Assembly: GCF_026914185.1 (NCBI RefSeq)
Contig: NC_070565.1
Span: 558,001 to 622,000 of the forward strand
Length of the DNA stretch: 64,000 bases
Reading direction: 5' to 3'
Source: Puccinia triticina
Taxonomy: Eukaryota; Basidiomycota; Pucciniomycetes; Pucciniales; Pucciniaceae
The translations under genes and the position numbers were made by a program. Shown here piece after piece: positions 52,319-64,000 of the stretch; position 1 is the first letter of the stretch, and each line of letters opens with the position of its first letter. Under the pieces are notes generated by a model. The model searched no databases and was not told the DNA's origin. It saw only the letters and a list, made by a program, of their open reading frames with translations.

Positions 52319-55300
52319 ATGTCCGATAACCTCCTCGCCCCAGATCCCGTCAAAGCTACTGGTCAACTTCATGTGCCCGGATTCACTCCTAGTGCAACAC
52401 CTGAACCTCCTCATCGTCACCATGTACGTTGACTTCTGCTCTGTTATTTTATTTATGATTAATGAGCATGATAAATATTCTTTGGTATATCCTGGGAAAT
52501 TCTGACTCATCTCGATTTGTTGATTCTTTAAAAAATATTGAATACTTTAGGTTGTGAAAAATACAGCGGGTTACGAAGATATCGTCTTTGAGGGCAAGAA
52601 AACCCAAGCCTTGAACGTTGAGGAGATCGTCGGAAAGAGTGGTTTTGTTCCCCAGAATTTGGTTCACAACGAGGTTGCTTGGTTGTAAGTCCATTTGGGT
52701 TTTAAAAATAACAATAACAAAGTATTAATTTTCTGGTGGTCCCATATTCACTCACTTGTCCTCTTTCTTCTGCTTTCTAGCTACAACAACCTCGGCATCG
52801 GTATGTGCTTCTCTGATCCGATTCCTCACTTGGAAAGCGCTGTAAAAGGATTATATTATATCGGTACTGATCGGGCGGATATACCTTTTGTGGTGTGGAT
52901 GACGCATAGATGACCAGTATTTCCGCATGGAAAGTGCGGAGACTGTGGCAGAGCACGTCACATCTTTGTACGGGGCCAAGATTCTCGCCTGGTCTCGTCA
53001 TCAGAAGCAGCTCGATATCAATCTTGAAAAGGAGACCGAAACAAATGCAGTTTACATTCACTCTTCCACTCCCGGGGTGTCTGACCCGTCGACCAATTTC
53101 GAGGCTAGGTGAGCACTGCTCTTGCTTGATATTGCCTCTCTTAATCTTGATTGACATCCAGCCTCTTCCCTCAAAACGCTTACTTCGTGTCTGCTCGATG
53201 TTCACCAGGATTGACGAAAAATTCTTAGACATTCCAATGAAGGACGGCACGTTCAGGTTAGAAACCTATCGATCAGCTGGTAATGTGGCTTCCAACGTGG
53301 CCCAGCGTCAGTACCTTCACTTTGCGTCATCGTCTCTATTTTTTGCCAACACATGGTGCGCACACATCCGGCTGACAATCAAATTCCCTCCTCAAACAGA
53401 ATTACGGTGCTACTTCGTAACCAAGTGCAACTTTGTCAATCCATCACCGGATGCGAAATCTGCTGATTACTCAGACATCCGAAAAGTTTCTGATCAGACC
53501 TTTTTATCCAAGGTTTCCCCGAACACGCTCGAGATTTATCAATCATTGATGCAAGCTGCCTTGACTCGGACGGGTCCAGTTGTCGAGTGTTACGAGGTCG
53601 AAGGCAACACTCTGGAGCGAAGGGTGGTGATTGCCTACAGACACGCTAGTACCAACCACTTCTTTAGTGCCATGAGTGATTTGTATCACTTCTATGGCCT
53701 CTACAGTACCCGAAAATACGTTGGTAAGCCTTGAACACTGATTCATTCGCTCTTGACAGAGTGATGACTGATTATTTTGAATGTGCTTCTTGCTATGCTA
53801 TGCCAGAACGGTTCAGTAATGGCATGACCATTATTTCTATCTATTTGCATTCCCTTCGTGGCCCTCCTATGTACGTAATTGACAATTGATCAATCGCGCC
53901 CTTTGCGTTTTGTTCTTGACTCTAGCTTTTTTCTTTCCATGATGTGCATCCTAGCGAGTCCGCAATCACCCAAGTCATTCGCGAGGCATCATTAGTCTTC
54001 TGTCTTCCCAACAATCCGTTTTTCCAGCCATCGACACACCATGCAGTTCAGGAAGCCGCCTATGCATACTGTGCTTCAATCTTTTCGCAGCACTTTCTTA
54101 ATAGACTGGGACCTTCATACCTTGCCCTCAAGGGTCTCCTGAACGAGTCAGATCCGATGCAAGCCGGCGTCCTTAACGACATTAAAAGAAGGTTCAGAGA
54201 AGAGACTTTCACCCGTCAGAGTATTACCGAAGTCGTCTTGGCTTATCCTTCAATTGTTAGTATTTCACTCGACCTTGCCCTCTCGTTCTCCTGATTTCAG
54301 TCGCTGATGAGGATCAAAACTCTCTAGATCCGATTACTTTACGTAAACTTTGCCTTGGTTCATTACATCAATGCATCTTCATCACGGCAACAGTTGATGT
54401 CAGTCGTTTTTCACCCCCTCCATAGGCTTTTCGAGATGCTGATAGTCAATCTTCGATTCTAGGCCCACCTTATCTTACCAGAGACTGCAAACCGGAACAC
54501 CTTTGACTGATGAAGAGTTGTATGCAAATATTCGCAAATCCGCCTCCAATTCGCATGATCTTCAAGTCTTGGAAAGCTTCCTGGTGTTCAACAAACACAT
54601 CTTGAAGACCAACTTTTACACTCCGACTAAAGTAAGTCAGTTCAGTGGCTATGGAATCCGCAATAGTATGACTCACTCACCGGGAAAATATCAGGTTGCA
54701 CTTTCTTTTAGATTGGATCCGGCATTCCTACCGGACGCCGAATATCCCATGACGCCGTATGGACTTGTGATGGTAGTCGGTTCGGACTTCAGAGGGTTCC
54801 ATCTAAGGTTCAAAGATGTTGCGCGAGGTGGGATCCGAATTATTCGTAGTCGGAACAAGGAGAACTATTCGATCAACCTTCGACAGCAGTTCGACGAGAA
54901 CTACAACTTGGCATTCACTCAATCCTTAAAGAACTCGACCATCCCGGAGGGAGGTGCTAAAGGAACGATCCTACCCGAGCTGGAATCAAATCCTAGGGCA
55001 TGCTTCGAGAAATATGTCGATGGTATCTTGGATCTCTTGATCCCTGGTCAATCGCCTGGGATTAAAGATCCAATCGTTGATCTTTACAATCGGCCGGAGG
55101 CTCTGTTCTTTGGTCCTGATGAGGGAACTGCGGACATGATGGATTGGGCTGCATTGCATGCCCGAGAAAGAGGCTATGATCAGTGGAAGAGTTTTACTAC
55201 CGGAAAGAGCGCCGGTCTATTAGGCGGTATCCCTCATGATGCCGTAAGATTCTCATTTCCTCTCACTCCAGCTAAAATGGCAATTACTCTTTAACACCCA

Positions 55301-57795: not shown

Positions 57796-57800
57796 CCAAT

Positions 57801-58058
57801 TGTTAGAGTCCTCCGGTGGAATCAGTAGTGCCAAGATTACATAAACAGTGTTTAGCATAATCATGTACTTACAAGCTAAACCTAACCGGTGCTAAGTCAT
57901 CATCAACCGGTTAGGTTTAGACTACATAACCTGGTCGGACCCGCGCCCGGCTCCAGTCTCTTTTCCTCACCGAGATTTGGAGCCGGATTCATCAGTGCCG
58001 AGACTGACCGCGACGGGACTGTTCCGCCCAGTTTCCCATTTGCCTGAGGCATCTTATA
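57801..58058 (+). repeat. 5' LTR of copia B
   Basis: 258 bp. Contains a perfect hairpin CTAAACCTAACCGGT (57876-57890) / ACCGGTTAGGTTTAG (57906-57920). Ends in TA rather than CA. Confidence 0.9.
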
Positions 58059-58098
58059 GGTTAAAAGCCGAATGCTCTACCGACTGAGCTAACCGGGC
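58059..58098 (+). other. primer-binding site complementary to the 5' half of tRNA-Lys(UUU)
   Basis: Directly after the LTR. The inverse reads GCCCGGTTAGCTCAGTCGGT then AGAGCATTCGGCTTTTAACC: acceptor strand, D arm and anticodon arm of a lysine tRNA with anticodon TTT, nucleotides 1-40, and nothing of the 3' half. The LTR/TSD structure shows this is an element part and not a tRNA gene hit by insertion. Confidence 0.85.
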
Positions 58099-58149
58099 GT
58101 TGATGGGATTATTCTCTCCACCGGCCGCTTACTGTCGTCGGGGTGGAAA

Positions 58150-60847
58150 TTGAATTATGACGGAACTCAGGCGACTTTGATGGACCCTTGTAACAATAGA
58201 TATGAAACTGTTTTCCATAACTATTGTTGGTCTCTCAAGACCAGTTCCATCCTGCAATCAAAGAAGGTGTCTCAGCTGCCATCTTTTGACCCCTACGTAT
58301 GGCACATCCGCCTCGGCCACGTCTCGGACGAGGTGGTTAAAAATTTCCTTCGCATCAACTATCCGGATGTGAAAATACATTGGAAATCGTTCTTCTGTGA
58401 GCAGTGCGCCAAGTCTAAGAGCCTCGACAAGAAGATGTTGGGCATGGAAACTCAGATCCCTCGCGATGAGCCCCTAGATTTCTGCGTTTCAGATGTCATT
58501 GGTCCACTCAACCTTGACATCAACGGATGCCGGTATTTAGTCACTCTGAGAGACCACGCAAGTACATACACATTCTGCGCGCCTATGCAACATCGGAGCG
58601 ATGTTCCAGACAAGATCATGGGATGGATTCGACACCTCAAGACCGCCCTTGGAAAGGTACCGACATACCTTCGCTGTGACAACGCGCTGGAGTATACCAA
58701 AAGCCTTAAGCCACAACTGGAGGCAATTGGTACCACCTTGGCGCCTGTGACTCCCTATTCCCCGGAACAAAATGGAGAGGCTGAGCGAGTCAACCAAACA
58801 CTCGGTGACATGGCTCGTACCATGTTGCACTCCAGTGAGTTATCCAGCAAGTGGTGGAGTTTTGCTTATCCAACGGCTGCACATCTACACAACAGAATTC
58901 CCAACAGCCAAACTAAAGACAAAACACCACTTGAGCTCCTCTACAAGGTCAAGCCCATCGCAGCGACTCTTTCCGTTTGGAGCGCGTGTGATCATCCACA
59001 TTCCGAAAGAACAGAGGAAGAAACTTGACGAGCGTGCGCGTGAGGGTCAACTACTTGGGTATCCAGCTTCTGGCACTGGTTGGTTGTTTTGGGTCCCCAG
59101 TGAACAAAGGATGGTACACTCCAGCTCCGTGAATTTTCCCAATTTTCAAAAGTTGCCGGTTAAAAAGGCTCCGACAACGACTGCTCCCGATCTTGTTGCG
59201 GCACCGGAACCCACGGAAACTCAAGTAGATCTCATCTTGAAGCAAATCATACTCCGTCTGGGTGAAGAGAAAACAGCGGAAATAGCGGAAGAAGAACGTC
59301 ACCAACTCTCCCTTTTGTCGACAGATGAGGAACACAACTTGCCGAAGACAATCAAGCAAGCCCTCGCCGGTCCAGATGCTCATCTATGGCGCGAGGCTGC
59401 TGAATATGAAATGCTTAAATTCGGTCAGTTGGAAGTCTGGATCCCCACCAATCCACCAAAGGCTTGCAAGGCACTGGGTGCGCGCTGGGTTTTCTCAATC
59501 AAGCAAAAACCGGACGGATCCATTGATAAGTACCGTGCTCGGTATGTTGCAAAAGGCTTCAATCAACAAATGGGACTGGATTACAATGAGACCTACGCGC
59601 CAACGGCTTCCCTCAACACACTACGCCTACTCATCTCTCTTGCGATTTCCAACAATCTCCACACAGCAACCTTTGACGTGAGCTCCGCCTACCTATACAG
59701 CCCAATTGAGGAAGAGGTGTATATACAACCTCCGGTTGAGATCACTCCCTCACTTAAGGGTAAGGTTATGCGTCTCAAGAAGGCTCTCTACGGCACCAAG
59801 CAAGCTGCGCGCTGCTGGTGGAAGTTCTTCCAGAAAACTGTAGAGTCACTAGGCTTTGAGGCTAGCAAAATGGAACCGTCTCTGTACCTTTTTTGACGCG
59901 CCGGCCATTTCATAATTATCTGGCTTCATGTCGATGATGGTTTCGCGGTGTCCTTGGAAAAACATTTGCTGAATGAATTACGACATGGTATGGAAAAACA
60001 GCTAGAGATTAAATGGTCCGACGATGTTCGACGCCTTGTGGGAATTGAATTCACGTGGGATGGTCCCCATCTTCGACTAGCTCAATCACTCATGGCCAAG
60101 CAAATTGTTGAGACTTATCACCGGAAGACGTTGCCGCACCATTGCCCTCTACCAGAATCTGACCTCGAAGCCTTCTCAGGCGACCCTGTTGATCAAACTG
60201 GTTATAGGTCTGTAATTGGATCTCTGATGTACCTTGTGTGTGGTACCAGACCAGATCTGTCTTATGGAGTCAATTTGTTGGCGCGGTTTTCGGCGGCACC
60301 ATCGGAGGAACACTGGAAGGCGCTTGACTGGTTAATTGGATATTTGGGACGAACGGCGGATAGGGCCCTTGTGTACAGGGCGGGAAACGGCGGCATGGAT
60401 CTTTGGACGGATGCAAATTGGGGCGGAGAACACGAACGGTCGATGACGGGCTATCTACTCACTCATGGCGGAAACAGTGTAGCATGGGGTTCTAGACGTC
60501 AAACAGTCGTGGCGATGTCAACTTGTGCGGCTGAATACCTTGCACTCTCGGAGGGCGCTCAGCAACTGGCGCATTTTCTCAATATCTTTTAAGAAATCGG
60601 ATTTAGCCCTAAGTTATTGATGCATTGCGACAATGAAGCTGCTATACTCATTGCTACGGACAACACCTCAAAAAAGAAGACAAAATATCTCCGGCGAGCC
60701 TTCTATTTTGTGAATGACTTGATAAGAGAAAACAATATCAACGTCTCGTGGACCAGTACTCACAATCAACTGGCGGATGTACTCACAAAGCGCTTGGGAC
60801 CAACAAAAATGACGGGGGCGTTGGATCAGCTAGGTGTGAGCCGGTAG
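58150..60847 (+). pseudogene. copia B Pol: integrase, RT, RNase H
   Basis: Pre-integrase HIRLGHVSDEVV with CEQCAKSK; integrase core FCVSDVIGPL, LRCDNALEYT, PYSPEQNGEAERVNQ; RT region KALGARWVFSIKQKPDGSID, TATFDVSSAYLYSPI, KALYGTKQAARCWWKFF and the catalytic IIWLHVDDGF; RNase H WTDANWGG, TCAAEYLALSEG, MHCDNEAAI, ADVLTKRLG. Damage: a one-base frameshift near 58970, TGA at 59894-59896 (YLF*RAGHF), TAA near 60590 (LNIF*EIGF). One frame continues through all three. Not functional as it stands. Confidence 0.9.
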
Positions 60848-60869
60848 TTTTTGTAATCTTGGAGGGGGG

Positions 60870-61219
60870 TGTTAGAGTCCTCCGGTGGAATCAGTAGTGC
60901 CAAGATTACATAAACAGTGTTTAGCATAATCATGTACTTACAAGCTAAACCTAACCGGTGCTTAGTCATCATCAACCGGTTAGGTTTAGACTACATAACC
61001 TGGTCGGACCCGCGCCCGGCTCCAGTCTCTTTTCCTCACCGAGATTTGGAGCCGGATTCATCAGTGCCAAGACTGACCGCGACGGGACTGTTCCGCCCAG
61101 GTTAGTACAGTCTTTTATGCAATTAACTTACCAAGATTTGGAGCCGGATTCATCAGTGCCGAGACTGACCGCGACGGGACTGTTCCGCCCAGTTTCCCAT
61201 TTGCCTGAGGCATCTTATA
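60870..61219 (+). repeat. 3' LTR of copia B with internal duplication
   Basis: 350 bp; 92 bp longer than the 5' LTR because a ~59-bp segment (AGATTTGGAGCCGGATTCAT...) is repeated, separated by about 33 bp of new sequence (GTTAGTACAGTCTTTTATGC...). Confidence 0.88.
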
Positions 61220-61224
61220 CCAAT

Positions 61225-61760: not shown

Positions 61761-62756
61761 TTACTTCCAGATTTTTTCTAGCTCTGCGATACGTTTGTAT
61801 GTGTCGGCTAAATCAGTGGGAGAGTAGTCTCTAATGTATAGTTTATAGCAGTTAGAGGTCCATCTCCCCAGGTCACAAATCTCCTCCGTTGGGACGCCGA
61901 TAGCGTACCTTAAGGAGGCGCCTCCTACGCGGAAGGAGTGACCGGATAAGTTCGGGCAGCCATTGGAACTCCAGATTTGTTTTAGGAGCCGGACGACGGC
62001 TGATTTGGAGAGGTGGATTCTGCCTTCTGCGCTGTGGTGTCCGAAAAGTGAGGTATCGCCTGGCCCGGCTTCCTTGAGTCTTCTCTTGATGGCTTCGACA
62101 GGGCACAGCATGTGTTTTAGACTGTGAAGGTGGATGGTTTGGGTGGTGCCTGGGGCACAAGTCTTGGCTCCTCTGATTGCGAGTTCGACGGCCTCGCCCA
62201 ACGCGGTTTTGGAGAACTTCACATCAGACGTAAGGAGCGCTGCGGACCATCTTAAGTTCCCTTGTGCGGAGTCGTAGGTAAGTTCCGAGAGTCTCGCCAT
62301 CCCCCAGAAAGCAACAATGGCCATGTCTAAAACTGACTTCCCAAACTTGTCGCCTTGAGCGAGGCTAAGCGCTAGAATGGTTAGGTGTTCGATCATGACC
62401 GGTGACTTCCTTGGTCGCTTGGGTCTTTCGGCATCTGCGTGTGCGGATGCCTGGAGGAGAACGGTGACTTTCGCCTTCGAATCGTTGGGGAATTCGGCTG
62501 AGTGATAGAGGTGCCAGGCTTGGAGTCCAAAAAGGTATTTTGCCAAGGTCACTGATGAGACGTCGTGCTTGGTTGGGTGTTCGAGTTTCCGGCCTGCCCA
62601 GCAGCAGAACCTATAGACGTCATCGGCCGTGATAGGAAGTTTGAAGGGGAACTCTTTTACCGCTACTTTAAATCTCACAAATTTTCTAACCCCGCTATTA
62701 TAGCTTAAAGTAGTATTCCATTTGTATCCTCTTAGTCCATTCTGCCAGCTGGGCAT
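61761..62756 (-). CDS. tyrosine recombinase of a DIRS-like retroelement, 331 aa
   Basis: Site-specific recombinase that would integrate circular cDNA. Catalytic residues of the phage-integrase fold: R155 in WGMARLSEL, H273 and R276 in GHSFRVGGASL, and Y307 in LGRWTSNCYKLYIRDY; N-terminal SAM-like part with VYRFCCWAGRKL. Lies downstream of a DIRS-type RNase H on the same strand (443 bp gap), which distinguishes it from a Crypton. Frame intact. Confidence 0.88.
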   Translation of the reverse strand: MPSWQNGLRGYKWNTTLSYNSGVRKFVRFKVAVKEFPFKLPITADDVYRFCCWAGRKLEHPTKHDVSSVTLAKYLFGLQAWHLYHSAEFPNDSKAKVTVLLQASAHADAERPKRPRKSPVMIEHLTILALSLAQGDKFGKSVLDMAIVAFWGMARLSELTYDSAQGNLRWSAALLTSDVKFSKTALGEAVELAIRGAKTCAPGTTQTIHLHSLKHMLCPVEAIKRRLKEAGPGDTSLFGHHSAEGRIHLSKSAVVRLLKQIWSSNGCPNLSGHSFRVGGASLRYAIGVPTEEICDLGRWTSNCYKLYIRDYSPTDLADTYKRIAELEKIWK

Positions 62757-63198
62757 TCACTGGCTTAGGATTAGGGTATGACTGATTGAGGCATAGTGTT
62801 GCCTAGGTGGCGTGCTCAAAACTTGAGCCTCTCAATCATGTGAGCGGGCCCGGGAGCTACTGCCTAGTAGATCCCCAAGCCGGCTCCGTGTGGGCTAAGG
62901 GGAGTTAGCTACCTTCTCACTTTGGTCGCCGCTACCTTTGCTCAGGAAGCTCAAGGTTTCTGGGCGTCTCCTTCTGGGAAGGAGAGTGAGTCTGGCTCTA
63001 GGGGGGTTGAGTCAACCCTCCTTTCTGCCGCTAAACTCTTAATGGTTCCAGGTTTCTTAGGTGATTAGCACTCTAATGTCGGAGCCCGCTCCCATAACTC
63101 AGGTGTTACCTGAGCCTGGCTTCGAGCCTGGTAACCATCCCTTAGCCAATTGTGGTGTTTCTATTACGCGCATGGTCTCGTGATCTATCAACATGGGT
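62757..63198 (-). other. spacer between RNase H and recombinase
   Basis: No ORF; contains several short inverted pairs (e.g. TTGAGCC/GGCTCAA type near 62815). May hold terminal-repeat or circular-junction sequence of the element. Confidence 0.4.
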
Positions 63199-64000
63199 TT
63201 AGAGATCCACCTGGGTGATCAGTTCCTCTAGGTCTCGAGGGATCTTTATGAGAATCTGGTCTCTCATCCTGTGGCCGTTGCGCAATCCTCTTGACAGCCC
63301 ATCTGCTCGGTTGTCCGCTGATTGTACCCTTTTCGCGACAAGGTTGATCTGATGCTCAACCAGTACCTTCTGGATTAGCTTCCATTCCGAGTTCACAAAT
63401 CGGTCACCTGATTTCCTTTTGAGGATTACCGATTCGGTCGTGGAATTATCGGTCCATACTATGAATGTTTTGCTTCCTTTCGCTCCAATCTTGATGAGCA
63501 TCATCAACTCTAGTCGTACCGCTATTGTTTCCAGGCGAGCTATCCTTTCTTCTTCCAGGTCTTCTATCAGGCCTCTGCTGAGTTTCTTGGTTGAAAGTAG
63601 GCAAAATTGGGCCCACTTGCGGCCTATTAGTACGCCAATGCCGAAACTAGTGGACGCGTCGCCCACCCACCCAATTTCTGTCGGGTCGGGGTTTGAGATG
63701 AGTCTAGTGGCTTTGAAGTTCAAAAGTGTGGAAAGCCATTCGTGTAAGTCTTTGTTTACGTCGTCTGGGACCAGTCGGCATGTCCGGCGGTCGATCCACT
63801 CCATCATCCAGCGGTAAAGGCTACAGAGATAACACCGGAGCTGAGGTAGGATGTAAGATACGTGGTTGAGTCTGCCCACTAGTATCTCCACCTCTGCGTA
63901 CTTGAAACGGGCGCCTAGTTCTAGGTACACCTTGATCTGAGAGATTCTCTTCTTAATCTTCTCTTCTGGGAGCCGCACCGTCTTGTAGAGGCCGTTCCAA
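63199..64000 (-). CDS. DIRS-like reverse transcriptase C-terminus and RNase H (partial)
   Basis: Runs in from beyond the right edge. RT-connection YAEVEILVGRLNHVSYILPQ; RNase H GWVGDASTSFGIGVLIG, EERIARLETIAV, VWTDNSTTESVIL and RVQSADNRADGLSRG provide the D, E, D, D set. Stop at 63199. Typical DIRS order RT-RH-YR. Frame intact in the visible part. Confidence 0.85.
   Translation of the reverse strand, partial: WNGLYKTVRLPEEKIKKRISQIKVYLELGARFKYAEVEILVGRLNHVSYILPQLRCYLCSLYRWMMEWIDRRTCRLVPDDVNKDLHEWLSTLLNFKATRLISNPDPTEIGWVGDASTSFGIGVLIGRKWAQFCLLSTKKLSRGLIEDLEEERIARLETIAVRLELMMLIKIGAKGSKTFIVWTDNSTTESVILKRKSGDRFVNSEWKLIQKVLVEHQINLVAKRVQSADNRADGLSRGLRNGHRMRDQILIKIPRDLEELITQVDL

What the first reader, a model, noticed from the sequence alone, without database searches (positions are those of the whole stretch)
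58059..58098. Copia element primed by a half tRNA-Lys
The 40 bases after the 5' LTR are complementary to nucleotides 1-40 of a lysine tRNA (anticodon TTT), ending exactly at tRNA base 1 and starting just 3' of the anticodon loop. Most copia elements use 8-18 nt of initiator-Met tRNA; Drosophila copia is primed by a 5' half of tRNA-iMet. A Lys half-tRNA primer in a fungus, with the whole half copied into the element, would be new to me. CCAAT duplications rule out a disrupted tRNA gene.
Basis: partly seen in the sequence, partly recalled or inferred. Interest (0 to 1): 0.88.

Follow-up and report, generated by a model that had tools for sequence, protein, structure and literature searches.

The report
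Copia element carrying its tRNA primer
A mobile element in a wheat leaf rust genome carries, next to its left terminal repeat, a copy of the cut half of a host transfer RNA that very probably started its own DNA copying, a molecular fossil of how these elements replicate.

Summary
The 40 bases are real: the exact complement of nt 1-40 of spliced tRNA-Lys(UUU). All 7 such genes found have an intron after nt 37. The host is Puccinia triticina by a contig-length match.

They are not the family's primer-binding site. Four of 4 relatives examined have an 11-nt site, GGTTAAAAGCC, then other leader. The window copy lost about 1.6 kb; the tRNA copy sits at that junction and stops at tRNA nt 1, with a 3-nt match to the parental sequence.

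Six more captures were found: four of Lys(UUU), two of the Lys(CUU) half after another LTR type. Six of 7 reach tRNA nt 1.

Best reading: copia groups here are primed by 5' halves of the two tRNA-Lys. Plus-strand synthesis sometimes copies the whole half, then transfers to a wrong place.

Other families also match the half in further leader blocks. Block 3 is GCTAACC at 15 non-capture UUU-type sites. In a CUU-type search allowing either letter it is the cognate GCTAGCC at 43 of 43 sites, 2 of them captures.

The parts
57796..57800 (.). Target site duplication CCAAT, left copy
   Evidence: Read directly; identical to 61220-61224
57801..58058 (+). 5' LTR (TGTTAGAG...CTTATA), 258 bp, with one copy of a tandem repeat of which the 3' LTR and the relatives' LTRs hold two
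   Evidence: 3 differences in 256 aligned bases against the 3' LTR plus 92 gap columns (which aligned from 2 bases inside each LTR)
58059..58069 (+). Primer-binding site GGTTAAAAGCC, complementary to tRNA-Lys(UUU) nt 30-40
   Evidence: Present at the LTR edge in 4 of 4 relatives and in many other families
58059..58098 (+). Captured copy of the 5' half of tRNA-Lys(UUU), nt 40 to 1, spliced form
   Evidence: 40/40; absent from the 4 relatives beyond the first 11 nt; 7 of 7 genes have an intron after nt 37
58096..58098 (+). Junction microhomology GGC shared by the tRNA 5' end and the parental sequence ...CCAGGC/GTTGATGG
58099..59028 (+). Remaining internal region; homology with relatives resumes here, about 1.6 kb beyond their PBS; ORF 58150-59028 with a weak gag_pre-integrase match
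   Evidence: Pfam PF13976 25.9 bits, below its cut-off of 28.4
58772..59896 (+). ORF with SH3_retrovirus and Ty1/copia reverse transcriptase (RVT_2) domains; the frames are broken and the element is defective
   Evidence: Pfam PF07727 129 bits, PF25597 45.7 bits on the piece 58997-59893; ORFs
59948..60592 (+). ORF in the position of the end of RT and RNase H (by position; no Pfam match)
60861..60869 (+). Polypurine tract GGAGGGGGG before the 3' LTR (plus-strand primer, inferred)
   Evidence: Read directly
60870..61219 (+). 3' LTR, 350 bp, with two copies of the tandem repeat as in relatives
61220..61224 (.). Target site duplication CCAAT, right copy

Best explanation
The element is a defective Ty1/copia retrotransposon of a large group in Puccinia triticina whose minus-strand DNA is primed by a 5' half of tRNA-Lys(UUU), cut after about nt 40, paired by nt 30-40 to an 11-nt PBS flush with the LTR. 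In the founding reverse transcription of this copy, plus-strand strong-stop DNA did not stop at the end of the PBS but copied the whole attached half-tRNA to its 5' end. Its 3' end (...CCGGGC) then paired through GGC with a minus strand that had stopped early, and both strands were extended. The result was integrated with a 5-bp duplication: LTR, copy of the half-tRNA, truncated interior, LTR. A second group of elements does the same with the half of tRNA-Lys(CUU). Shown: sequence identity, agreement with the spliced form, exact end at tRNA nt 1, deletion, microhomology, duplication, recurrence with two tRNAs. Inferred: the primer role, the order of steps, the cut at nt 40.
For: 1. 40/40 match to spliced tRNA; 7 of 7 Lys(UUU) genes have introns after nt 37, and so do the 8 Lys(CUU) genes read. 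2. Four of 4 relatives (interior 84.7-95.5% identical) carry only the 11-nt PBS; the window copy lost about 1.6 kb with the tRNA copy at the junction. 3. C15:2226581 holds 40/40 with another LTR and another deletion; GGGC shared at the junction; duplication GGTCG. 4. C10:2917102 holds 39/40 of the Lys(CUU) half, 100-bp LTRs, duplication CTTTC on both sides, and a short pol-like interior. C16:504392 holds the whole Lys(CUU) half with 6 extra bases inside, joined to the stretch just before the 3' LTR. 5. Six of the 7 captures found reach tRNA nt 1 exactly, one stops at nt 7. For the 4 Lys(UUU) captures that reach nt 1, what follows is not the upstream flank of any of the 7 genes. 6. C8:2228689: LTR plus tail lies in a known empty site with GAATA on both sides. 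C6:2701414: LTR plus tail with ATCC at both edges. 7. All 7 substitutions in captures are C-to-T type changes at CpG (6, which left out the last 6 non-tRNA bases of C8:2228689; 1). 8. Orientation: antisense tRNA downstream of the LTR on the plus strand is what copying of an attached primer gives.
Against: No small-RNA or cDNA data show the half-tRNA or its 3' end. The two readable junction microhomologies are short (3 and 4 nt); for C10:2917102 the relatives are too distant to read one. C10:978545 shows no clear target duplication and its left LTR edge is unclear. The C8:2228689 insert ends in TGTCA and starts with TTTTAG where related LTRs start with TGTTAG; neither is explained. The C6 duplication is 4 identical bases, not 5. 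The 3 nt beyond the splice site lie within the old PBS, so the splice state alone does not prove an RNA source. In the CUU group ordinary leaders already match much of the half, so capture and PBS are less sharply separated there. Ty1 and Ty3 are reported not to inherit the primer sequence (PMC7472051 section 13), so copying of the primer is unexpected for this superfamily.
Confidence: 0.82

Rival explanations
1. The 40 nt is the true, inherited primer-binding site of this element: a long PBS that pairs with the whole half-tRNA, lost by decay in relatives.
For: Other families keep further blocks matching the half, and duplex energies are beyond shuffles for many of those leaders.
Against: Four of 4 relatives have an 11-nt PBS followed by unrelated leader; the interior of L010 is 95.5% identical to the window copy. 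In the window and C15 copies the sequence after tRNA nt 1 lies 1.6 and 0.8 kb further on in relatives, each with its own breakpoint. The gap from block 1 to block 3 is 12-16 nt in the 8 UUU leader types and 15, 16, 17 or 19 nt in 41 CUU sites, against 18 in the tRNAs; among captures it is 18 except in C16:504392, which has 6 extra bases.
Confidence: 0.06
2. The tRNA stretch came from genomic DNA: the element recombined with, or inserted into, a tRNA-Lys gene.
For: tRNA-Lys exon 1 exists at 15 gene places.
Against: Genes carry an intron after nt 37, yet captures read on to nt 40 as spliced tRNA. None of the 4 Lys(UUU) captures that reach nt 1 continues into a gene flank. CCAAT, GGTCG and CTTTC duplications show clean single insertions.
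Confidence: 0.02
3. The half-tRNA was joined as RNA: the primer still attached to minus-strand DNA was ligated by its 5' end to the 3' end of a broken minus strand and later copied.
For: Gives the same orientation and the same exact end at tRNA nt 1.
Against: Does not predict GGC and GGGC microhomology at the two readable internal junctions, and needs a ligation step.
Confidence: 0.06
4. The primer is a whole tRNA-Lys paired internally through its anticodon arm, cut only when synthesis starts.
For: No RNA data tell when the cut happens.
Against: Synthesis must start from a 3' end at about nt 40, flush with the LTR in families A and C, so a cut half is needed at the moment of priming.
Confidence: 0.04

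Closest known systems
Drosophila copia, half tRNA-iMet primer
   Same: Ty1/copia element primed by a half-tRNA (one passage in PMC5371799; the initiator-Met identity and cut site are recalled)
   Different: Lys instead of initiator Met; here copies of the primer itself are found in genomic elements
Plant copia lineages Osser, Bryco, Gymco-II (half tRNA-Met) and Bianca (half tRNA-Ile)
   Same: PBS complementary to half-molecule tRNA, only in Ty1/copia (passages in PMC6317226)
   Different: The passages name no Lys half and no captured primer
Candida Tca2 (half tRNA-Arg) and yeast Ty5 (half tRNA-iMet)
   Same: Fungal copia elements with half-tRNA PBS (recalled; not confirmed by any search)
   Different: Other tRNAs; other fungi
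Ty1 and Ty3 primer handling
   Same: Fungal LTR elements; both use a bipartite PBS (passage in PMC5371799), comparable to the further leader blocks seen here
   Different: Reported to inherit the PBS strictly and not the primer sequence (PMC7472051 section 13; Lauermann and Boeke 1994 seen only as a reference title)
Retroviral plus-strand strong-stop DNA (HIV, MLV)
   Same: The primer tRNA sequence is copied during second-strand synthesis (PMC7472051 section 13)
   Different: There only about 18 nt of a whole tRNA are copied (recalled); here the whole 40-nt half

Membership tests
Ty1/copia (Pseudoviridae) | Copia-type reverse transcriptase (RVT_2) with the integrase region upstream of RT | tested here: met
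   PF07727 129 bits, SH3_retrovirus before it, weak gag_pre-integrase match upstream; the integrase core itself gave no Pfam match at E 1e-3
Ty1/copia (Pseudoviridae) | LTRs with a 5-bp target duplication | tested here: met
   CCAAT in the window, GGTCG at C15, CTTTC at C10:2917102
Half-tRNA-primed copia elements | PBS next to the LTR complementary to the anticodon arm, not to the tRNA 3' end | tested here: met
   GGTTAAAAGCC flush with the LTR pairs with tRNA-Lys nt 30-40
Half-tRNA-primed copia elements | Primer is a tRNA cut in the anticodon stem, detected as RNA or as start of cDNA | not testable with these tools
   Indirect only: captured copies cover nt 1-40 and are flush with the LTR, or 1 nt away in family B
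Retrovirus-type primer copying | DNA of the element contains a copy of the tRNA primer beyond the PBS of its relatives | tested here: met
   29 nt beyond the 11-nt PBS in the window copy and 27 nt beyond the 13-nt PBS of its relatives in the C15 copy; that the strand was plus-strand strong-stop is inferred
Multipartite PBS (Ty1/Ty3 type), window family | Further leader blocks complementary to the primer tRNA | tested here: not met
   Leader of L010 no better than shuffles, 29% of 300 reach it; local alignment also negative
Multipartite PBS (Ty1/Ty3 type), other families here | Further leader blocks complementary to the primer tRNA | tested here: met
   15 UUU-type non-capture sites with GCTAACC, reversed control 2; 41 CUU-type non-capture sites with cognate GCTAGCC, none with GCTAACC, control 0. 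That the blocks act in priming is not testable here

The most novel reading that the evidence does not exclude
Rust copia elements copy their half-tRNA primer during plus-strand synthesis as a regular step. Because a half lacks the 3' part of the tRNA, the copy can run to the tRNA 5' end. This leaves captured primers and tailed LTRs, and lets many families keep a three-block PBS (nt 30-40, about nt 18-23, nt 5-11) that matches nearly the whole cognate half-tRNA, telling Lys(UUU) from Lys(CUU) even at tRNA nt 7, far from the anticodon. That would be a primer-inheritance route thought absent from this superfamily. (Raised from 0.30 after searches showed the second tRNA and the cognate block.)
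Probability: 0.4. Interest if true: 0.82.

Novelty: new variant of a known kind. Interest (0 to 1): 0.7.

Why it matters
Half-tRNA primers are mostly predicted from PBS sequence alone. Here a genome holds the primers themselves as DNA, with their exact 5' end, in seven copies and for two tRNAs, which is near-direct evidence for half-tRNA-Lys priming in a basidiomycete. It also makes a standing question testable in genome data: do Pseudoviridae copy their primer? Ty1 is reported not to. Captured primers can be searched for in any genome and would name the primer of a family without biochemistry.

Tried and rejected
Rejected: long inherited PBS for the window family; recombination with a tRNA gene; chance. 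The 17-mer scan for Lys(UUU) captures had a high background (18 sites, reversed control 11), so each capture was accepted only after reading 34-40 matching bases. The matching scan for Lys(CUU) gave 49 sites, control 29; I read 23 of the 49 in context, so the count of CUU captures is a lower bound. Leaders L100, L101 and L102 match 24-33 nt of the CUU half and were not counted as captures.

Local alignment of leaders beyond nt 13 with the UUU half: of 12 distinct rows, 5 were captures; of the 7 ordinary leaders 2 (L030, L079) had P below 0.01 by 500 shuffles and 5 (L010, L042, L052, L056, L061) did not; leaders too near a locus end (such as L078, L080, L081, L083, L085) were left out by the script. 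Duplex energies with the UUU half: of 15 ordinary leaders 7 beat all 300 shuffles (L030, L078, L079 and 4 short leaders chosen because they hold GCTAACC); L085, L056 and L042 were borderline (0.027, 0.030, 0.070); L080 (0.10), L010, L052, L061 and L083 were not significant. With the CUU half: of 16 leaders 10 beat all 300 shuffles and all were at 0.04 or below, but 14 of these 16 had been picked by a 17-base match, which favours them. In held leaders of CUU type, 4 of 20 distinct 42-mers hold GCTAGCC and 1 GCTAACC; in UUU type 11 of 29 hold GCTAACC and 0 GCTAGCC, captures included. The exception with GCTAACC appears to be L114, whose PBS would fit an Asn(GUU) anticodon better. For UUU-type sites the genome-wide search asked only for GCTAACC, so the either-letter test was made for the CUU type alone. 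Copies of one family are not independent; 41 CUU sites are 28 distinct strings.

ARAGORN (bacterial settings) found no tRNA in the window and misnamed or missed intron-bearing genes; exons were read by script. No title or abstract start in the listings pointed to captured half-tRNA primers or a Lys half in fungi. I saw passages of PMC5371799, PMC6317226, PMC7472051, PMC5014426 and PMC7175516, and section 13 of PMC7472051 whole; no other paper was opened.

Full report
OBSERVATION. Window 58059-58098 lies flush against the 5' LTR of a copia-type element (LTRs 57801-58058 and 60870-61219, CCAAT on both sides, GGAGGGGGG before the 3' LTR). It is the perfect reverse complement of tRNA-Lys(UUU) nt 1-40. 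Seven genes with this exon were found and read; each has a 20-29 bp intron after nt 37 and splices to 73 nt, and in none are nt 1-40 contiguous. The spliced tRNA folds as a cloverleaf with TTT at nt 34-36. The element is Ty1/copia by its RT (PF07727, 129 bits) and is broken. The host is Puccinia triticina: P0084 is annotated PtA15_5A216 [Puccinia triticina] on a contig of 8,063,893 bases, exactly the length of contig C5 here.

THE FAMILY'S OWN PBS. Four relatives with both LTRs (L010, L013, L014, L022; interior 84.7-95.5% identical) all read LTR end, GGTTAAAAGCC (tRNA nt 40-30), then TGCTCGCTGC..., not tRNA. The same motif sits at the LTR edge of many other families, sometimes as 13 nt. TATAGGTTAAAAGCC occurs at 149 sites at up to 1 mismatch, against 12 for the reversed control. 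So a large group shares a half-tRNA-Lys PBS, and the extra 29 nt are special to the window copy.

THE WINDOW COPY IS A CHIMERA. The sequence after the tRNA copy, GTTGATGGGATTATT, lies 1605-1608 nt after the PBS start in the relatives, 40 nt in the window. Relatives read CCAGGC before it, the window CCGGGC; the shared suffix is GGC. The junction is exactly tRNA nt 1 joined to the upstream coding region. The 5' LTR also lacks one copy of a tandem repeat that the 3' LTR and relatives hold twice; whether this arose in the same DNA synthesis is unknown.

SIX MORE CAPTURES. A scan for GGTTAAAAGCCGAATGC at up to 2 mismatches gave 18 sites (reversed control 11): 5 captures including the window, 6 tRNA genes, 5 leaders of the L030 type and 2 unrelated. 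(a) C15:2226581 (L009): 40/40, another LTR, duplication GGTCG, LTRs 5 differences in 328; the interior resumes where relative L072 is 805 nt past its PBS start; GGGC shared. (b) C6:2701414 (L015): 39/40 after a family B LTR and one spacer base; a single LTR with a tail; ATCC at both edges. (c) C8:2228689 (L071): nt 40 to 7, then TGTCA; the 328-bp insert is flanked by GAATA, which a homologous empty site on C11 holds once. (d) C10:978545 (L012): 37/40 after a family C LTR; old, edges unclear. Reading the remaining sites and a scan with the Lys(CUU) letters gave two of another tRNA. (e) C10:2917102 (L097): 39/40 of the Lys(CUU) half after an LTR ending CACAACA, then a short interior that reads like copia pol by eye and matches other elements; 100-bp LTRs with 4 differences, CTTTC on both sides. 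(f) C16:504392 (L099): the whole Lys(CUU) half with 6 extra bases inside (GTACCA after TACCA), then a T run and the last bases before the next LTR. Eight Lys(CUU) genes were read and all carry introns. All 7 substitutions across the captures are of the C-to-T type at CpG, so the captures were probably perfect when made. In (b) the PBS reads GGTTAAAAGCC, as the tRNA predicts, while the two related leaders in hand read GGTTAGAAGCC; on few data, this hints that the PBS part too was copied from the tRNA.

MECHANISM. Antisense tRNA directly after the LTR on the plus strand is what plus-strand strong-stop DNA looks like if it copies the attached primer. Retroviruses do this as part of the normal cycle; Ty1 and Ty3 are reported not to inherit the primer (PMC7472051, section 13). 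With a half-tRNA the template ends at nt 1, which explains why 6 of 7 captures reach exactly that point. A 40-nt tail does not fit the short PBS on the minus strand, so the normal second transfer fails; the window and C15 copies were rescued by pairing of the last 3-4 nt of the tail with a minus strand that ended early. Captures (e) and (f) have the same layout with larger deletions; their junctions could not be compared with a close parent (for (e); not tried for (f)). Captures (b) and (c) look like an LTR end integrated with the tail still on. Inferred, not shown: that the half-tRNA is the primer, its cut after nt 40, and the order of steps.

FURTHER BLOCKS IN OTHER FAMILIES. GGTTNNAAGCC, 10-24 bases, GCTAACC (complement of Lys(UUU) nt 5-11) occurs at 18 sites, 3 of them captures, reversed control 2. 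The other 15 form 8 leader types in my grouping, three of them family B; exact TCTACC (complement of nt 18-23) lies between in 2 of the 8 types, close variants in most others. The two tRNAs differ at nt 7 (U in UUU, C in CUU). A search for GATTAAGANTC, 10-24 bases, GCTARCC, which allows either letter, gave 43 sites (control 0): 43 of 43 have the CUU-cognate GCTAGCC. Two of the 43 are captures; the 41 others are 28 distinct strings, with CTACC between the blocks in 34 of 41 (21 of 28 distinct; shuffled middles gave at most 4 in 2000 rounds). Spacing is mostly 16 (29 of 41), none 18 as in the tRNA. The blocks therefore follow the cognate tRNA. The sequence does not decide whether they are an extended pairing site like that of Ty1/Ty3 or old captures kept in part; the fixed, shorter spacing favours selection for pairing. 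The window's own family lacks the blocks.

LITERATURE. Half-tRNA priming is known: Drosophila copia (passage in PMC5371799) and plant lineages with half Met or half Ile (passages in PMC6317226). The listings showed no report of a Lys half in fungi or of captured half-tRNA primers; the library is open-access only, so this is weak evidence of absence.

VERDICT. The 40 nt is a fossil of the primer in a chimeric copy, not a 40-nt PBS. It is a new variant of a known kind of priming with unusually direct evidence, and the cognate leader blocks point to a wider use of half-tRNA-Lys in this genome.

Noticed in passing
C8:2228689 (L071:2701-3028): The tail of this single LTR stops at tRNA nt 7 and ends in TGTCA before the duplication; the insert starts TTTTAG instead of TGTTAG. 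The source of TGTCA is unexplained.
   Followed up: partly
L078, L079, L085, L111, L112, L114 (leaders): PBS variants GGTTAGAAGCC, GGTTCAAAGCC and GATTAACAGTC would fit anticodon loops of Arg(UCU), Gln(UUG) and Asn(GUU); possible primer switching by single changes (anticodons read by eye, no tRNA gene compared).
   Followed up: no
L100 (C16:462233), L101 (C8:480282), L102 (C11:1329631): Leaders after LTR-like ends that match 24-33 nt of the Lys(CUU) half; long PBS or partial captures, not resolved.
   Followed up: partly
L098 (C6:5632660): A stretch equal to Lys(CUU) nt 1-33 apart from nt 1, then unrelated sequence; nature unclear.
   Followed up: partly
window 61761-64000, minus strand: Next to the element lie ORFs of 331 and 266 aa that look by eye like the recombinase and RT/RNase H of a DIRS-type element; Pfam gave no match.
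   Followed up: no
window 57801-58058 and 60870-61219: LTRs of this family carry a tandem repeat about 91 bp apart; the window's 5' LTR lost one copy, the 3' LTR did not.
   Followed up: partly
window 54503-55294: ORF that looks like part of a host NAD-glutamate dehydrogenase (by eye, no search).
   Followed up: no
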